Source: a virus
Strand: one strand, 5' to 3'
IMG/VR virus record: IMGVR_UViG_3300044712_001462
Location: 1 to 64,000 of that record
Length of the DNA stretch: 64,000 nucleotides
Under the pieces are notes generated by a model that saw nothing but the letters and a program-made list of their open reading frames with translations, was not told the origin of the DNA and searched no databases. Within the stretch, counting starts at the first letter, position 1; each line of letters opens with the position of its first letter. Below are positions 2,488 through 10,621 of the stretch, one piece after another. The position numbers and the translations under genes were made by a program.

Positions 2488-3456
2488 TTACGCCCGATTA
2501 CGTAGTTCCTCACAATGGGACCGATAAGCCTGCGCCACCGTCCCATCCTGATCCACGTTCGCCACGTCCATTCCTTTGCGCACAAAGAAATACTCAGGCA
2601 CAAACAGCTCCTGAGGTGACATGGCGTCGAGCCACACTTCCCGCAAAAACAACACAAACCACGAAGAGGCCCGCAGAGTACCCCTAATAGGATCATCTAT
2701 TTCCAGGTACCGACGCCAGACAAGATTGCCTGGAAGATCCAATTCGGGATAAGCCGGAGCCTCCCGCTTCGAATCCGTCCAGGCGTCAATGAGATTCCAG
2801 GTCCTCGAGGAAGCCTGACCGTATTGCTCCAAGACACTCACATCTCGGTGCCAAACCTTAGAGACAATCGGCGTTCGTAACCCAAGATAGCTGCGCAACT
2901 TAGCAGTGCGTCCAGGACGCGCTAGATCCACATACCATCTGGGGTCCACAATATGCGCCAGCAGCATCTCCATATCGACCCGGCTGTACTGCTGGAGAAA
3001 AGACACCGCCGCATAAGCCGGATGCTTCTCCAGCAAACCTTCTCGGTCTGTCCCGTAGAATACGGAGTTCACCAGCGCATACACCGTCATGTCGTGTCCG
3101 GTGGCCTTGTGCCAGCCACCCAGACACGCATTCAAACCATCTAGCCGGTCCATGCCTTCCAGCACTTCTCCCGGCTCCGTCTGGTACAGCGTTCGGCAGA
3201 ACAACGGAGTACCAATTTCCAATTTCTCTAAACACCCAGCTGCTTGTAACACCCGTCCGAGTTCAATAATCAAACCCGCATTACAAGGCAAACCTAGTAA
3301 ACGTACCTTCTCCGCCTTGGTGCACAACTCATCTGCAGCAAACGCATCAGCGCGTAGATTTGAAGATTTCGCCTTCCCTTTCCCATCCGCGAACCATACC
3401 ACGCCAGAGCTGTCCGCATAGGTACGAAGCTCTTTAACGTGTTTTCCTAGAAGCAT
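2488..3456 (-). CDS. Unknown protein, 322 residues, in recombination operon
   Basis: No family recognised. It starts at an ATG with AAGGCGGA upstream, and its first base is the last base of the SbcC-like stop codon, so the two are almost certainly translated together. Visible features are a Lys/Ser-rich stretch near residue 30 and a C-terminal half rich in Trp, Tyr and Leu; there are no nucleotide-binding loops. The position immediately after the SbcC/SbcD-like pair suggests an accessory factor of that complex or a replication clamp-loading or primosome protein, but I cannot distinguish these. Confidence 0.75.
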   Translation of the reverse strand: MLLGKHVKELRTYADSSGVVWFADGKGKAKSSNLRADAFAADELCTKAEKVRLLGLPCNAGLIIELGRVLQAAGCLEKLEIGTPLFCRTLYQTEPGEVLEGMDRLDGLNACLGGWHKATGHDMTVYALVNSVFYGTDREGLLEKHPAYAAVSFLQQYSRVDMEMLLAHIVDPRWYVDLARPGRTAKLRSYLGLRTPIVSKVWHRDVSVLEQYGQASSRTWNLIDAWTDSKREAPAYPELDLPGNLVWRRYLEIDDPIRGTLRASSWFVLFLREVWLDAMSPQELFVPEYFFVRKGMDVANVDQDGTVAQAYRSHCEELRNRA

Positions 3457-5570
3457 TAATTCCGCCTTATTTCAATTTTGTTGTCAAAGACTCGCTCAAG
3501 TCGATGATCATGTGTGATGATGATTACTTGCTGACCTTTTTCCCTGGTCACCTCGGAAACATGTTCCAACATGTCCACGAGACATTCAATATTGTCGCCG
3601 TCCAAGCCTGCCGTGGGTTCATCGAGAACCATCAAACCTACCTGTCCTGCGACCGAAAATCGGAAAGCAATCCCAAGGATTACCTTCTCACCACCCGATA
3701 GACGAGCGGCTTCCTCAACATACCCTCTCGGCTTATGCGCCATAAATGTCAGCTTGTCCTCCACGCTCACGCGGAAAGGACCGTTAAACAGCTCGAGTGT
3801 CTCATTGACACTATCCACCATGCCCTCCACTCTCGTCTGCGTGACGATGCGGGGAAGGGCCTCTCGGTGGAACACATCGCGCCACAGCGCCAAATCCGAC
3901 AGCCAGAGCTGAGCAGATTGTGTTCTCGCTATTAGAGTCGTGATGCGCTGAATGCCAGACTTATATTCATCCACCAGCTTCGAAGCTACCGAAAGAGCCG
4001 ACTTGTGCTTCCACAGATCCTGAGAAACCTGCTTGTGGACAGCGATCGCGTTAACAGCAGCCTCGTAGTCCTTCTCGCTGACCTTCAACTTGACGATCTG
4101 GCCACCTAGCGTCTTTACCTGGCGCTCCAGCTCGGCCGCACTACCTTCCTCCTGGGCAATCAACTTACGCGCTGTATTGCACTGCAGCTCCAGATCTTCG
4201 ACATACTGGATCGCTTCCTGCAGCTCGGCGTTAGCTGTACCCACATCCGCGGCGTTGATTTCTTCATCTACCTCTACAGGCGGGGGCAACTTAGCCAGAG
4301 CCAAGCGTGCTGATTCCATCTCCGCGTTATAAGCTTTGAGCTGTTTCTCGTAATCTGCGAGAGCCCGCTCGTAACCGTCAGAGATGCGATACTGCTTAAT
4401 CACCGCGTCATACTCGGCCTGCAGACGCTTCATCTCTTTGGTCCAGTGCTCAACACCGTTCTCCATATCGGATACCAGTGTTCCACACGTCGGACACTCC
4501 GAGACGCCGCCCTCCTCAAACACAGCGACCCGTTTCGCCAACACCTTCTTCTGGGTGTCAAGATCCCCCGCTCGAGATGCTAGTGCCTTGCTGTGCACGT
4601 ACTCGGGCGGCTCATCAATAACCGTAGGTGCTTTTTTCAGAAGTACGGCCTCGTACTTCTGACGCTGGACATCAAATTTCCTGTTAGCCTGCTGTTCGTC
4701 ATACTTGGCTTTCAGGGCCTTATATTCGGGCTGAAGCTTCGTATCAACCGCCTCACGAGCAGGCTCATACTCATCATCAAGCGCACGCAGCTTCGCGTAG
4801 AGTTTAATAATCTTCCCAGCCACCAGTGCTTGGCGTTCCTGAGCCTTCTCCAGATCCTGCAACAAGCGCTGGCGCATACCCCAGTCAGTCACCTGCTTCT
4901 CGGCTGCTTCCAGATCCTCGGGACTGAGGACGAACGTCTCCAGCTCCTTGATCTTCTCCTGTGCCGCAGCCATGCGCTTCTTCTGTTCTTTGATCTTCTC
5001 TTTCAGCTCATCGCGGTTGTCATCCACCTGGGAAGCCAACCCCTGATCCGCGGAGATCTGCTTACCCAGCATCGACCAGATCTGCTCAGCCCGATCGACA
5101 CCACAGAGCTTAGCGAAACTCTTTTGGCGCTCCGCGGGGTCTGATACCAGAATCGAGAAGGTGCTCCACTGCTGGACAAACATAAAGTTCTCGATGACGT
5201 GACGGTCGATGCCGATAAACTTTGTCAGCTCGTCAGAGATCTCATTCGCCTTCGACCACTTCTTGTCACCGATTACCAGCTTCTGGGAGGCCGGACGGAG
5301 CCCTCGCGTAATCGAGAAAGGGATTCCATCGTGCTCCCACTCCGTCACAATCTTCGACACCGCGTCCTCTGGAGCATCGTGTCGAATGTTAGCCTCTTTC
5401 TTACCTGGGTTGACTCCGAAGTCACCCGTCAGAGAGGCTTGGATCATATTTACAGCATTACTTTTTCCAGAACCATTCGGTGCGGTGATACCCGTAATGC
5501 CGGGCTCAAACTCTAAATATAGCTTCTCATGCTGACAAACATTCGTCAGATCTACCGACTTAAGCCGCAT
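3456..5570 (-). CDS. SbcC/Rad50-like (T4 gp46-type) recombination ATPase subunit
   Basis: A 704-residue SMC-like ATPase. Walker A PNGSGKS is at about residues 31-37. A long coiled coil is interrupted by a zinc hook CPTC near residue 358. The ABC signature LSGGEK is near 621, and Walker B with the following aspartate loop (VLDEPTAGLD) near 640. These are the diagnostic parts of SbcC/Rad50/gp46, which with its nuclease partner resects or trims DNA ends for recombination-dependent replication. It starts with ATG preceded by GGAGGAAGCGG, and overlaps the SbcD-like gene by 11 bases, typical of coupled translation of the two subunits. Confidence 0.95.
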   Translation of the reverse strand: MRLKSVDLTNVCQHEKLYLEFEPGITGITAPNGSGKSNAVNMIQASLTGDFGVNPGKKEANIRHDAPEDAVSKIVTEWEHDGIPFSITRGLRPASQKLVIGDKKWSKANEISDELTKFIGIDRHVIENFMFVQQWSTFSILVSDPAERQKSFAKLCGVDRAEQIWSMLGKQISADQGLASQVDDNRDELKEKIKEQKKRMAAAQEKIKELETFVLSPEDLEAAEKQVTDWGMRQRLLQDLEKAQERQALVAGKIIKLYAKLRALDDEYEPAREAVDTKLQPEYKALKAKYDEQQANRKFDVQRQKYEAVLLKKAPTVIDEPPEYVHSKALASRAGDLDTQKKVLAKRVAVFEEGGVSECPTCGTLVSDMENGVEHWTKEMKRLQAEYDAVIKQYRISDGYERALADYEKQLKAYNAEMESARLALAKLPPPVEVDEEINAADVGTANAELQEAIQYVEDLELQCNTARKLIAQEEGSAAELERQVKTLGGQIVKLKVSEKDYEAAVNAIAVHKQVSQDLWKHKSALSVASKLVDEYKSGIQRITTLIARTQSAQLWLSDLALWRDVFHREALPRIVTQTRVEGMVDSVNETLELFNGPFRVSVEDKLTFMAHKPRGYVEEAARLSGGEKVILGIAFRFSVAGQVGLMVLDEPTAGLDGDNIECLVDMLEHVSEVTREKGQQVIIITHDHRLERVFDNKIEIRRN

Positions 5571-6702
5571 CCGCTTCCTCCACCGTTAACCGCTCCTGTC
5601 GCAACATCTGCAACTCAGCAGCAGGATCTTTACTCTCCAGCAAACGATATAGCACCTGGTAGTGCTCATTATCCTCTGGCACCAGCAGCTTCAAGCAGCC
5701 TGCCAGACCGGCCTCAATCACGCGCTCGCGTTCTTCCCGCTCCAGAGAGATGGCCTCGTCTTCCGACTCGCGGACCAACAACTTCGGGAACAGAAAAGCC
5801 GTATTACCTACCGCATCCTGCACGCGCCGCAAAGCCCCTTCCACGTTGTCGTAGAACTTCAACCAGAGCATGGGCTTCTGCAGATGACCGGGTAACTCGT
5901 CGACGTCCAGACCGCTCAGCCGATCCTTCCACGTATCCACAAACTGCTCGAGATCGTCATCATCCGCGATCGTCTCGGTAATAACCGGTCGCGTCGGAAT
6001 CTCATGATGCGTCCAGCTGCCGTCTTCACGCAACAAGTAGTAATACTTCTTCGTGGGTTCATCGATCTTCCGCATATTCGTCGAGCCCGGTGAGTACACC
6101 GTCAGATCCTGACCCGACTCACCAATCAGCTTCAACACCTTGCGTTCGTGATAGTCACCAGTGAAAACCGTCTTGGCATACGGGATCTGGGTAAAACTAC
6201 CCTCACAGGGACGAAGGGCCCCCATAAGCTCCATCCAGACCTGGTGACAGACAAACAAATCGCAGTTCGACGGGATCGCCTTCAACTTCGACGCCAACTT
6301 GTCTCCCGGAGTCCAGTCCAAGCCGTACATCAGCATACCGTTTGGCAACTCCACGGCTTTCTCGTTCAAGTGAACAGGACAGCTGTGCGCGCTGATCGGC
6401 CAGGGCGGATCCGCCATGCAGTGTTGACCCTGGATAAAATACAGATCCAGGCCTTTGTCGCACACTGCTGCGGCTTGCTCCCGAAAGAAACGGATCACCT
6501 CAGAAGGAGGCTTCCGTACATCGAAGACATCGCCTGCCAGACAAATGAAAGATACCGATTCTGCCTCGGTCACTAAATACTCAAACGCCCACATGGCGTC
6601 CCCGCGGAGCTCAGGTTTCGAGCTCCACGCGTTAACATCTAGATGAGTGTCGGCACAGAATAGGCCGACCGGCTGAGCTAGCCGTTTAAGAAGTTTGCTC
6701 AC
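5560..6702 (-). CDS. SbcD/Mre11-like (T4 gp47-type) nuclease subunit
   Basis: A 380-residue calcineurin-like phosphoesterase paired with the SbcC-like gene. Phosphoesterase motifs in order: D18-x-H20, G57-D58-x-x-D61, a motif III reading GQHC at 92-95 where the family has GNHD, H153, and GDYH at 182-185 where the family usually has GHxH. The distal PGSTN segment is also typical of Mre11/SbcD. The start is GTG in the GAGTGAGTGAG junction with the upstream gene (4-base overlap). The metal-ligand Asn is replaced by Gln and the next Asp by Cys, so catalysis may be altered. Confidence 0.9.
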   Translation of the reverse strand: MSKLLKRLAQPVGLFCADTHLDVNAWSSKPELRGDAMWAFEYLVTEAESVSFICLAGDVFDVRKPPSEVIRFFREQAAAVCDKGLDLYFIQGQHCMADPPWPISAHSCPVHLNEKAVELPNGMLMYGLDWTPGDKLASKLKAIPSNCDLFVCHQVWMELMGALRPCEGSFTQIPYAKTVFTGDYHERKVLKLIGESGQDLTVYSPGSTNMRKIDEPTKKYYYLLREDGSWTHHEIPTRPVITETIADDDDLEQFVDTWKDRLSGLDVDELPGHLQKPMLWLKFYDNVEGALRRVQDAVGNTAFLFPKLLVRESEDEAISLEREERERVIEAGLAGCLKLLVPEDNEHYQVLYRLLESKDPAAELQMLRQERLTVEEADAA

Positions 6703-7957: not shown

Positions 7958-8146
7958 TTAGTTCTCCTGCTCAACAGACTTCAGTTTTGGATCTACAATG
8001 TTTTCTAACTCTGTCCGCAGCACACGTATGTGCTTCGGAGCCACAATCCCTAGCCGCACCCGACCGTTGTTGCACTGAATAGGCACAATCAGAATGTCGT
8101 CACCAATGCGAATTGATTCATTTGTCCTCCGTGTGATACACAACAT
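7958..8146 (-). CDS. csrA: CsrA/RsmA-family translational regulator
   Basis: The 62-residue product matches CsrA in length and along its whole sequence. It has the N-terminal strand MLCITRRTNESIRIGDD, a central RVRLGIVAPK segment, and the strand containing R44 (VLR), the residue that contacts the GGA motif in E. coli CsrA. CsrA dimers bind GGA-containing hairpins near ribosome binding sites and repress or stabilise mRNAs. The ATG is preceded by AAGGAATGGA. The gene lies six bases before the acidic-protein gene and directly after the alpha-CTD-like gene, so phage control of host gene expression is a reasonable inference. Confidence 0.93.
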   Translation of the reverse strand: MLCITRRTNESIRIGDDILIVPIQCNNGRVRLGIVAPKHIRVLRTELENIVDPKLKSVEQEN

Positions 8147-8162: not shown

Positions 8163-8480
8163 TTAAAACCCGATCATAAACCTGCGTTCTTGCGTTCGTT
8201 TTCGCTCTAATTCCTCTTTCACCGAGCGAATGTATTCACGGCTTGGGCGATAGAAGCCCAGCTTTTCCAGCGCGCGGTATATCTTGCTTACCGTCTTATC
8301 GCCGATGTTTGGAATCCCTAGTAGCTCTTCAGGGCGACTCAGTAAGAGGTCGCGAATCGTCCGCACAACCGGCGGGTGACTAGGATTTTCTAGAGCATTT
8401 GTTGTCCGAACATCAAGACCAAGAACTTGCACAGGCTCATCTAAGAGAGCCTGTTGTTCGCGTGTCAATCCTTCAAGCAT
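8163..8480 (-). CDS. Stand-alone RNA polymerase alpha C-terminal-domain-like protein
   Basis: A 105-residue protein whose residues 13-76 follow the bacterial RpoA C-terminal domain: DEPVQVLGLDVRTTNAL, then a helix, then a helix-hairpin-helix IPNIGDKTVSKI. Residues that contact UP-element DNA in E. coli alpha are kept: R25 (R265), N28 (N268), G60 (G296) and K62 (K298); S299 is Thr. The alpha N-terminal assembly domain is absent. A basic helical tail (77-105) follows. It may bind DNA or sigma in competition with, or in support of, host polymerase; that is inference. The ATG follows AGGAATCTGA. Confidence 0.88.
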   Translation of the reverse strand: MLEGLTREQQALLDEPVQVLGLDVRTTNALENPSHPPVVRTIRDLLLSRPEELLGIPNIGDKTVSKIYRALEKLGFYRPSREYIRSVKEELERKRTQERRFMIGF

Positions 8481-8800
8481 TCAGATTCCTGGGATACATA
8501 GAAATAGCCACACATTTCCTTCGGATCACTGCGCGCACCGAAGCTGATAACTGCTGCACGATATTTATCCTGCAGAATAGGCAGGAGGTACTCTATCGCT
8601 TCCCTCACAGCCAACTCTGATCCAAGATAGCGCACTACAGCACGTCCACCATAGTACGACCAGTCGACTCGCTGACCACTCAGCTTGGCCACAGCGCGAA
8701 CCCAGTTTTCAATCTCAGCACACGGCACCGTATGTGTAACAAATATTGCTCTACCGTGGGAAAACACATCCGCATCGCACGGCGGTAATTCCTTACTCAC
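8465..8800 (-). CDS. Unknown protein upstream of the alpha-CTD gene
   Basis: About 111 residues. The GTG at 8800 has GAGAGG six to seven bases upstream; an in-frame ATG at 8806 is an alternative but is placed right against the same site. No family recognised. Mixed alpha/beta, with no membrane segment. Its 3' end overlaps the alpha-CTD-like gene by 16 bases, so the two are probably co-expressed. Confidence 0.7.
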   Translation of the reverse strand: MSKELPPCDADVFSHGRAIFVTHTVPCAEIENWVRAVAKLSGQRVDWSYYGGRAVVRYLGSELAVREAIEYLLPILQDKYRAAVISFGARSDPKEMCGYFYVSQESECLKD

Positions 8801-9080
8801 AATCATCCTCTCTTGCTGCGGCCTCAATCAAATGTGGTGGCACCGGCACGTCCTGGATCCTAGCCACTCGCTGCAGTCGTCGAGCTATGTCAGGCGGACA
8901 ACCAGGATCGTCCCATCCGCTTAACGTCTCCACAGGCGGCAACAGACACTTCAACAACTCCACATCCTCACGCAGACTGATTATATCTCGCTGCAAAAAA
9001 TCAATCAGCGTCTCGGGTCTCGGCTTAGGCACACGACCGTACCCCTGCGACTCGCACCAGGCCTTATAACTATCACTCAC
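8793..9080 (-). CDS. Unknown small protein, 95 residues
   Basis: It starts with GTG at the GGTGAGTG junction with the gene upstream (4-base overlap) and ends overlapping the next gene by 8 bases. Residues 25-50 form a predicted helix with heptad-like Leu spacing. The first residues (SYKAWCESQGYGRVPKP) are basic and aromatic. No family recognised. Confidence 0.7.
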   Translation of the reverse strand: MSDSYKAWCESQGYGRVPKPRPETLIDFLQRDIISLREDVELLKCLLPPVETLSGWDDPGCPPDIARRLQRVARIQDVPVPPHLIEAAAREDDCE

Positions 9081-9534: not shown

Positions 9535-9917
9535 GGAGTTTCAGAACTCGGAGACAGCTCAATACCCAGTAGCTCAGCAGCCTTCCTCACATCAGCCAGG
9601 GTGACACTACTCAGCTCTATCCGATAGCCATAAGTCTTTTGGTGAATCTCCGACACTAGACGCGCAAACTCTACCCTGTCGTTGTAGTGCTGCTCGGAGT
9701 CATACAAAGTGCCCGGAGATGAATACTCACCTCCATCAACCTGTCGCCAGTATTTGTCTGTCTTGTCAAAGCGATGACCGTTAGACAAGGTACACCACTT
9801 CCTACCCACCTTTGTCACCGTTACTGGTCCAGATGTATTGAACCTCTGAGCACCAACAAACCAGAACGTGTCACCTACTTTTACATCCACTACTATCTCT
9901 CCCCCGAACTCTAGCAA
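9528..9917 (-). CDS. Unknown protein with beta-barrel-like N-terminus
   Basis: A 129-residue protein. Residues 8-50 look like a small SH3/KOW-type barrel (VGDTFWFV, then VTVTKVGRKWCTLSNG), a pattern seen in many phage accessory proteins. The C-terminal half is helical. It overlaps the Thg1-like gene upstream by 7 bases. A nearby GTG or ATT could be the true start, so the N-terminus is uncertain by a few residues. Function unknown. Confidence 0.7.
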   Translation of the reverse strand: MLEFGGEIVVDVKVGDTFWFVGAQRFNTSGPVTVTKVGRKWCTLSNGHRFDKTDKYWRQVDGGEYSSPGTLYDSEQHYNDRVEFARLVSEIHQKTYGYRIELSSVTLADVRKAAELLGIELSPSSETPR

Positions 9918-10621
9918 GCTACCGACTCGTCGCAGTACACCAACGGTTCCAACACCTCGTTGATCTCTCCATACGACGGCAGAATATCACTGCGCAACTC
10001 CTCGCCGATAATGAACGTCCCATTCCGCTCAACATCACTTAGATCAGTAGCCCAGTTCTTATCGATCGAATGCAGCATCTCGTGCTGATCCGCCCGGCCT
10101 TTACCGTGCATCTCTTTGTGTGAGAAGTAGTGCCCACAGTACATGGTTACGGAGTTCCGTTCCCAGTCCTTCGCTCTCCAGAGAAAGTAGTTGACTACCT
10201 CCTCTCGAGGAATATTAAACGCACGGGCATCAAATGCAGCCATCAGCTGGCTATCCTCGCACACTCCCCAAATGAAGCGGTTAAACGTAGCCGTAAACAG
10301 ACTAGCTGTGATTGATTCCAGCTTGCTCTTCACGTAGCCGAACCAACCCTCTGTCTGATGTGTGTCATAGTCTGTCAGCAAGAAAGACGCCTCATCACTC
10401 TGGATGTACGCCGCCTTAAATCCTTGCATCTCTTTGGACACCTGCTGGGCTGAATCGCGCATAGCATCAATTATCAGCTCGGAAAACGGCCTATCAAACG
10501 ACCGCGTATACGTGTGAAAAGCTCGCCCATCCACCCGTATAATCACAGGCATCCGCCGCACCAGCTGATGTCGACTTGGAAACTCGTAATTCGCCTTCAT
10601 TCTTGCGCCAATGTCCATCAT
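9911..10621 (-). CDS. Thg1-like 3'-5' nucleotidyltransferase (tRNAHis guanylyltransferase family)
   Basis: A 236-residue protein matching the Thg1/TLP palm domain. IRVDGRAFHTYTRSF at 28-42 carries the first metal-binding Asp (D31). QSDEASF at 74-80 carries D76 and E77. RAFNIP...NYFLWRAKDWERNS follows in the family position. All three catalytic carboxylates are present. Family members add nucleotides to RNA in the 3'-to-5' direction, either as G-1 of tRNAHis or as 5'-end repair. The start is one of two adjacent ATGs after AAGGAGG (10621 or 10618). The phage could use it to repair tRNAs cut by host defence; that is inference. Confidence 0.9.
   Translation of the reverse strand: MMDIGARMKANYEFPSRHQLVRRMPVIIRVDGRAFHTYTRSFDRPFSELIIDAMRDSAQQVSKEMQGFKAAYIQSDEASFLLTDYDTHQTEGWFGYVKSKLESITASLFTATFNRFIWGVCEDSQLMAAFDARAFNIPREEVVNYFLWRAKDWERNSVTMYCGHYFSHKEMHGKGRADQHEMLHSIDKNWATDLSDVERNGTFIIGEELRSDILPSYGEINEVLEPLVYCDESVAC

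What the first reader, a model, noticed from the sequence alone, without database searches (positions are those of the whole stretch)
8163..8480. Free-standing RNA polymerase alpha-CTD with UP-element contact residues intact
R25, N28, G60 and K62 correspond to R265, N268, G296 and K298 of E. coli alpha, but there is no alpha N-terminal domain. A soluble alpha-CTD could occupy UP elements, sequester activators or bind region 4 of sigma. I know of no well-described phage protein of this kind, though a search is needed.
Basis: partly seen in the sequence, partly recalled or inferred. Interest (0 to 1): 0.8.

Follow-up and report, generated by a model that had tools for sequence, protein, structure and literature searches.

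The report
Phage stand-alone polymerase alpha-CTD protein
A large phage that carries its own multi-subunit RNA polymerase also carries a tiny protein that is only the DNA-gripping tail domain of the bacterial polymerase alpha subunit, apparently taken from a family of such stand-alone proteins in planctomycete bacteria; it is real and unstudied, but not the first of its kind in phages.

Summary
ORF 8163-8480 (minus, 105 aa) is one RNA polymerase alpha-CTD: Pfam PF03118, E 4e-10, 39.7 bits against a cut-off of 23.8. Its AlphaFold model matches solved alpha-CTDs better than any other helix-hairpin-helix fold. R25, N28, G60 and K62 align with R265, N268, G296 and K298. There is no alpha N-terminal domain in the 224.5-kb record, nor in 50 related records.
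New: (1) The same record encodes a beta-beta' RNA polymerase, as in the 'mReC' phages. (2) In 84,980 bacterial and archaeal genomes, all 15 confirmed relatives are stand-alone alpha-CTD proteins of planctomycetes (48-54% identity), not RpoA, which suggests a planctomycete host and origin. (3) 11 of 50 RNAP-related phage records carry stand-alone alpha-CTDs, from at least two sources, one with four in tandem, against 0 of 47 T4-like and phiKZ-like records. Close pairs are under purifying selection. (4) It sits next to csrA in an early-type gene cluster.
Best reading: a host-derived, promoter-upstream DNA-binding regulator acting in trans. Which polymerase it serves is unproven. Phage alpha-CTD-only proteins are already annotated (Bacillus phage Goe8, Mycobacterium phage Mithril); I found no study of one.

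The parts
8163..8480 (-). stand-alone alpha-CTD protein, 105 aa
   Evidence: ORF; PF03118 E 4e-10 over cut-off; fold match to solved alpha-CTDs
8262..8459 (-). alpha-CTD domain proper (PF03118 match, codons 8-73)
8487..8490 (-). Shine-Dalgarno-like AGGA upstream of the ATG at 8480
   Evidence: sequence read; inference from position
8465..8827 (-). upstream ORF overlapping the alpha-CTD start by 16 bases, no family; suggests translational coupling in one transcript
7958..8146 (-). csrA homologue directly downstream (62 aa)
   Evidence: PF02599 E 1.1e-17; a csrA also lies within 0.7 kb of the alpha-CTD gene in G010
3456..6702 (-). SbcC-like (3456-5570) and SbcD-like (5560-6702) genes of the same minus-strand cluster; also near the alpha-CTD gene in G027 and G029
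9911..10621 (-). Thg1-like tRNA-His guanylyltransferase, upstream in the same cluster
   Evidence: PF04446 E 4.4e-27, phrog_4717 8.6e-75

Best explanation
The protein is a single RNA polymerase alpha-CTD used without the rest of the alpha subunit. It was most likely acquired from the family of small stand-alone alpha-CTD proteins found in planctomycetes (order Pirellulales and kin), so the phage probably infects such a host. It most likely works as a regulator in trans: it binds AT-rich minor groove upstream of promoters through the conserved R25/N28/G60/K62 surface and alters which promoters are used during the early or middle phase of infection, as the host's own stand-alone alpha-CTD presumably does. 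Shown here: identity, fold, DNA-contact residues, absence of an alpha-NTD, planctomycete kinship, recurrence in RNAP-encoding phages, purifying selection in close phage pairs. Inferred: DNA binding, the promoter effect, the host, the timing, and which polymerase is affected.
For: Domain, fold and residues. No alpha-NTD in 51 records. Kinship: all 15 confirmed relatives in 84,980 genomes are planctomycete proteins with the alpha-CTD as their only recognised domain (ORFs of 89-163 aa), 48-54% identical, sharing 'ALEKLGFYRPSRE' with Rubripirellula/Rhodopirellula; K298 is kept as in that family while planctomycete RpoA has T there. Function retained: dN/dS about 0.02-0.09 between close phage pairs of sister alpha-CTDs. 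Recurrence: 11/50 RNAP-related records against 0/47 controls, Fisher p 0.0006. R265 and G296 equivalents are invariant in every phage and host copy compared. Placed in a cluster with csrA, SbcCD, a helicase and Thg1, not with virion genes.
Against: No experiment; no close homologue of the window protein itself, so selection could be measured only on sisters. The loop insertion near the DNA face and the lost 261 determinant may change the function. The function of the planctomycete family is itself unknown. The tree has few columns, and the window's placement is not in a starred clade. The excess in RNAP-related phages may reflect host range rather than a link to the phage polymerase.
Confidence: 0.5

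Rival explanations
1. It is a detached promoter-binding module of the phage's own polymerase: the phage RNAP (fused beta-beta' plus a separate beta' C-terminal part, no alpha) uses this protein in trans at phage promoters.
For: The record encodes beta-beta' and beta' C-terminus and no alpha-NTD; alpha-CTDs occur in 11/50 RNAP-related records and 0/47 others.
Against: 39 of 50 RNAP-related records show no alpha-CTD, though many are fragments; phiKZ-like phages, which encode their own RNAPs, have none; copies come from different host families; the gene is 100 kb from the RNAP genes in this record; nothing shows a tether to the polymerase.
Confidence: 0.2
2. It is a host-takeover decoy: a soluble alpha-CTD that competes with host RpoA or with the host's own stand-alone alpha-CTD for UP elements or activators and so shuts down host promoters.
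For: Other phages attack alpha: Rac of phiKMV-like phages leads to cleavage of the alpha subunit (PMC7552054); T4 alpha modification (general knowledge). Goe8 has its alpha-CTD gene near the genome end in an apparent terminal repeat.
Against: DNA affinity of a single alpha-CTD is expected to be weak, so competition needs high expression; no evidence on expression. The 4x tandem version in G010 would suit tighter binding, but the window protein has one copy.
Confidence: 0.18
3. It is a general helix-hairpin-helix DNA-binding protein serving DNA repair or replication, as its SbcCD, helicase and Thg1 neighbours might suggest.
For: Alpha-CTD is an HhH fold; weak matches to HHH_5/HHH_8; SbcCD is also nearby in G027 and G029.
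Against: Alpha-CTD fits better by sequence and structure; the transcription-type DNA-contact residues are conserved; other alpha-CTD phages have different neighbours.
Confidence: 0.1
4. It is a neutral host gene fragment picked up by chance.
For: No close homologue of the window copy itself.
Against: Intact ORF with ribosome-binding site inside a tight gene cluster; conserved contact residues; recurrence in at least 12 records; strong purifying selection in sisters.
Confidence: 0.02

Closest known systems
Small stand-alone alpha-CTD proteins of planctomycetes (Rubripirellula, Rhodopirellula, Thermoguttaceae; e.g. L266, L271, L277)
   Same: Single alpha-CTD, no other domain, 48-54% identity, shared C-terminal ALEKLGFYR(PSRE), K298 kept
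   Different: Phage copy lacks the N-terminal T-R-(I/V) motif, has a 4-residue insertion after helix 1 and a longer charged C-terminal helix; acidic residue at 259 lost
Bacterial RpoA C-terminal domain (E. coli, Thermus)
   Same: Fold, PF03118, R265/N268/G296/K298 equivalents
   Different: No N-terminal domain, so no assembly into core polymerase; 261 determinant lost
Bacillus phage vB_BmeM-Goe8 c00050 ('RNA polymerase subunit alpha', 210 aa) and Microbacterium phage Mazun gp26 ('DNA binding protein', 141 aa)
   Same: Phage proteins ending in one alpha-CTD with R265, N268 and G296 kept, no alpha-NTD match
   Different: Extra N-terminal parts of 70-140 aa; different hosts; not close in sequence
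BFVD/UniProt entries 'RNA polymerase, alpha subunit, C-terminal' of uncultured Caudovirales and Mycobacterium phage Mithril A0A5Q2WLP1
   Same: Annotated phage alpha-CTD-only proteins with matching predicted fold
   Different: 22-30% identity; no function reported in the papers searched
Multi-subunit-RNAP-encoding Caudovirales, mReC (Weinheimer and Aylward 2020, PMC7481178)
   Same: Large tailed-phage record encoding beta and beta'
   Different: That paper's main text does not mention alpha or hosts by phylum; here a fused, intein-bearing beta-beta' plus a stand-alone alpha-CTD

Membership tests
RNA polymerase alpha-CTD domain (PF03118) | Profile score over curated cut-off | tested here: met
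   39.7 bits vs 23.8
RNA polymerase alpha-CTD domain (PF03118) | Alpha-CTD fold, better than other HhH families | tested here: met
   Top Foldseek hits are alpha-CTDs; RAD51 and LigA far below
RNA polymerase alpha-CTD domain (PF03118) | DNA-contact residues R265, N268, G296, K298 | tested here: met
   R25, N28, G60, K62 by alignment
RNA polymerase alpha-CTD domain (PF03118) | Binds UP-element/A-tract DNA | not testable with these tools
   needs binding assay
RpoA (alpha subunit) | Alpha N-terminal dimerisation domain | tested here: not met
   105 aa only; PF01193 absent from the record and from 50 related records, control positive in 13/14 genomes
Planctomycete small stand-alone alpha-CTD family | Single alpha-CTD without other domains, about 85-120 aa | tested here: met
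Planctomycete small stand-alone alpha-CTD family | Closest relatives in genome-wide search belong to it | tested here: met
   15/15 confirmed relatives
Planctomycete small stand-alone alpha-CTD family | N-terminal T-R motif invariant in the family | tested here: not met
   T2 R3 invariant in A6, absent from the phage protein; so it is called a relative, not a member
Planctomycete small stand-alone alpha-CTD family | Falls inside the family in a tree | tested here: inconclusive
   nearest rows by path, but no starred clade; few columns
mReC phages (for the host record) | Encodes beta and beta' of multi-subunit RNAP | tested here: met
mReC phages (for the host record) | Major capsid protein of PF07068 | tested here: inconclusive
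   0 of 8 records, but no control genome rang either
mReC phages (for the host record) | RNAP branches with the phage clade outside cellular RNAPs | not tested
   only identities seen: up to 57-58% to other phage betas

The most novel reading that the evidence does not exclude
A group of planctomycete phages with an alpha-less multi-subunit RNA polymerase repeatedly captures stand-alone alpha-CTD proteins of its hosts and uses them as detachable promoter-upstream binding subunits, so that alpha's two jobs (assembly and promoter contact) are split, with the second supplied in trans.
Probability: 0.18. Interest if true: 0.85.

Novelty: new variant of a known kind. Interest (0 to 1): 0.6.

Why it matters
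If the protein acts as proposed, promoter contact by alpha-CTD can work without covalent attachment to RNA polymerase, both in a phage and in its apparent planctomycete hosts, whose stand-alone alpha-CTD and TPR-alpha-CTD proteins I found no study of. It also gives a first hint of the hosts of RNAP-encoding large phages, and a small soluble protein that is easy to test.

Tried and rejected
Single-sequence searches for close phage kin of the window protein: none in IMG/VR, only one weak hit in named phages and three in plasmids. PHROGs has no family for it. RNAP C-terminal part as bait gave no relatives; the beta region did. Alignment A3 was too diverse to scan. Other HhH families (HHH_5, HHH_8, LigA, RAD51 N-domain) considered and rejected on score. 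Alpha-NTD encoded elsewhere in the record: rejected. Sigma-70 region 2 in this record: none; 3 of 51 related records have a match. Conserved gene neighbourhood across all alpha-CTD phages: none, only csrA (2 records) and SbcCD (3 records). Host gene neighbourhood in planctomycetes gave no functional clue.

Full report
OBSERVATION. ORF 8163-8480 on the minus strand encodes 105 aa. It starts with ATG at 8480, preceded by AGGA at 8490-8487, and overlaps the end of the upstream ORF 8465-8827 by 16 bases, so it looks like a translated gene of a tight cluster. Pfam gives RNA_pol_A_CTD at E 4e-10, 39.7 bits against a cut-off of 23.8; the generic HhH models fall below their cut-offs. NCBIfam finds only the C-terminal part of RpoA models. 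The best solved relative is Thermus alpha-CTD. An AlphaFold model from eight phage sequences (pLDDT 77.7) matches solved alpha-CTDs first, with RAD51 N-domains and DNA ligase well behind. R25, N28, G60 and K62 align with R265, N268, G296 and K298 of E. coli.

TWO DEPARTURES FROM A STANDARD ALPHA-CTD. Four extra residues (about 33-36) lie between the helix bearing R25/N28 and the next element (alignments), and the three acidic '261' positions that contact sigma in E. coli are Q, V and G here (role of these positions from general knowledge). A charged C-terminal helix (residues 81-103) follows the domain.

THE PHAGE. The window is the start of a 224,528-base IMG/VR record. The record, read in stretches, encodes a DNA polymerase A, a terminase (PF05876) and many virion-type proteins, and, decisively, a 1,911-aa protein with RNA polymerase beta domains followed by beta' domains (Rpb2_6 E 3e-48, Rpb1_2 E 1e-24) interrupted by an intein, plus a 632-aa protein with Rpb1 domain 5 (E 7e-21). 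It thus resembles the multi-subunit-RNAP-encoding Caudovirales ('mReC') of Weinheimer and Aylward 2020 (PMC7481178). Their text mentions neither alpha nor a host phylum. Formal membership was not established: I ran no RNAP tree, and the capsid test was inconclusive.

RELATIVES IN PHAGES. The beta region found 469 IMG/VR contigs encoding relatives. Of the 50 longest records searched, 11 carry PF03118 (10 over the cut-off). None of the 51 records, the window's included, has the alpha-NTD domain PF01193, although 13 of 14 control genomes do. The alpha-CTD proteins are 103-220 aa, except one of 375 aa with four alpha-CTDs in tandem. In 47 T4-like and phiKZ-like records of comparable total size, none was found (Fisher p 0.0006; records within a group are related, so this p is optimistic). 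A scan with one alpha-CTD subfamily found 14 contigs; 3 of the 12 records checked show the RNAP, while most of the others are fragments. Pairs of sister alpha-CTDs have dN/dS of about 0.09, 0.02 and 0.07 (calculated from dN and dS), hence purifying selection.

ORIGIN. A scan of 84,980 bacterial and archaeal genomes with the window protein confirmed 15 relatives, all planctomycetes, and all in small ORFs with an alpha-CTD and nothing else recognisable. Identity is 48-54%, with an identical ALEKLGFYRPSRE stretch in several. Each of these 15 genomes also has rpoA and a second protein with two alpha-CTDs; the sequences read show the latter to be a TPR-like protein ending in two alpha-CTDs. Across 59 genomes of the phylum most have three matches, which fits rpoA plus the two-alpha-CTD protein; the small stand-alone gene appears to be a further one in a subset (inferred from match counts and frame lengths). 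In a 35-row tree and by pairwise score, the window protein is nearest to the small stand-alone proteins, whereas the G015, G009 and G010 copies are nearest to the TPR protein's alpha-CTDs, so there were at least two captures. The tree is short of columns and the window's place is not strongly supported. The comparison set is rich in planctomycetes, but the genome scan that chose it was not restricted to them. I take a planctomycete host as likely, not shown.

CONTEXT. The gene lies in a minus-strand cluster with csrA directly downstream (7958-8146), SbcD and SbcC, a helicase and Thg1. In G010 a csrA lies within 0.7 kb of the four-fold alpha-CTD gene. CsrA occurs in 27 of 51 records, and in 11 of the 12 with an alpha-CTD (p 0.0025; record length is a confounder). 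No neighbour is shared by all. The cluster is not one of virion genes, which suggests early or middle expression (inference).

MECHANISM. The conserved surface is the DNA-contact surface: R265 and G296 equivalents are invariant in all phage and host copies compared. The sigma-contact surface is not conserved in the window copy. The best reading is therefore a DNA-binding regulator acting in trans at AT-rich upstream DNA, borrowed from a host family that already works without alpha-NTD. Whether it serves host RNAP, serves the phage's alpha-less RNAP, or blocks host promoters cannot be decided from sequence. The excess in RNAP-encoding phages is compatible with a polymerase link but equally with shared hosts. 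Phages are known to target alpha: the Rac protein of phiKMV-like phages leads to alpha cleavage (PMC7552054).

NOVELTY. Phage alpha-CTD-only proteins are already annotated: Goe8 c00050 and Microbacterium phage Mazun gp26, and BFVD entries including Mycobacterium phage Mithril. I found no paper that studies one. What is new is the planctomycete stand-alone origin, the recurrence in RNAP-encoding phages that lack alpha, and the tandem form. I rate it a new variant of a known kind.

Noticed in passing
record G000 116475-122210 (L004:12475-18210, minus) and 112644-114542 (L004:8644-10542, minus); outside the window: Fused beta-beta' RNA polymerase interrupted by a LAGLIDADG intein, with the beta' C-terminal part in a separate gene.
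   Followed up: partly
record G000 196205-199120 and 142787-144703; outside the window: Two further intein-like insertions: in a portal-like protein (weak Pfam Intein_splicing) and in an AAA-ATPase-like protein (read by eye).
   Followed up: no
planctomycete genomes G108-G122 and G123-G180; e.g. L281, L285, L310: A TPR-like protein ending in two alpha-CTDs (449-480 aa where read) seems near-universal in Planctomycetota, beside rpoA and, in some, a small stand-alone alpha-CTD; I found no study of it.
   Followed up: partly
record G000, TTAGCTAT at 196064, 139960, 126097, 112624 and 37881 (minus): The 8-mer TTAGCTAT lies 25-75 bases upstream of a gene start at 5 of its 7 sites in the record, often just after a terminator-like T-run; a possible promoter element (post hoc).
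   Followed up: partly
L118:7001-8128 (minus), record G010: Phage protein with four tandem alpha-CTDs, close to a csrA gene.
   Followed up: partly
window 9911-10621 (minus): Thg1-like tRNA-His guanylyltransferase in the phage.
   Followed up: no
record G000 218162-221542 (L009:14162-17542, minus); outside the window: DNA polymerase A with an N-terminal uracil-DNA-glycosylase-like domain (PF03167 E 1.6e-10).
   Followed up: no
27 of 51 RNAP-related phage records: CsrA homologues are common in these phages, some with two.
   Followed up: partly
L117:7881-8543 (minus), record G009: Phage protein joining a DUF3085 domain to an alpha-CTD.
   Followed up: no
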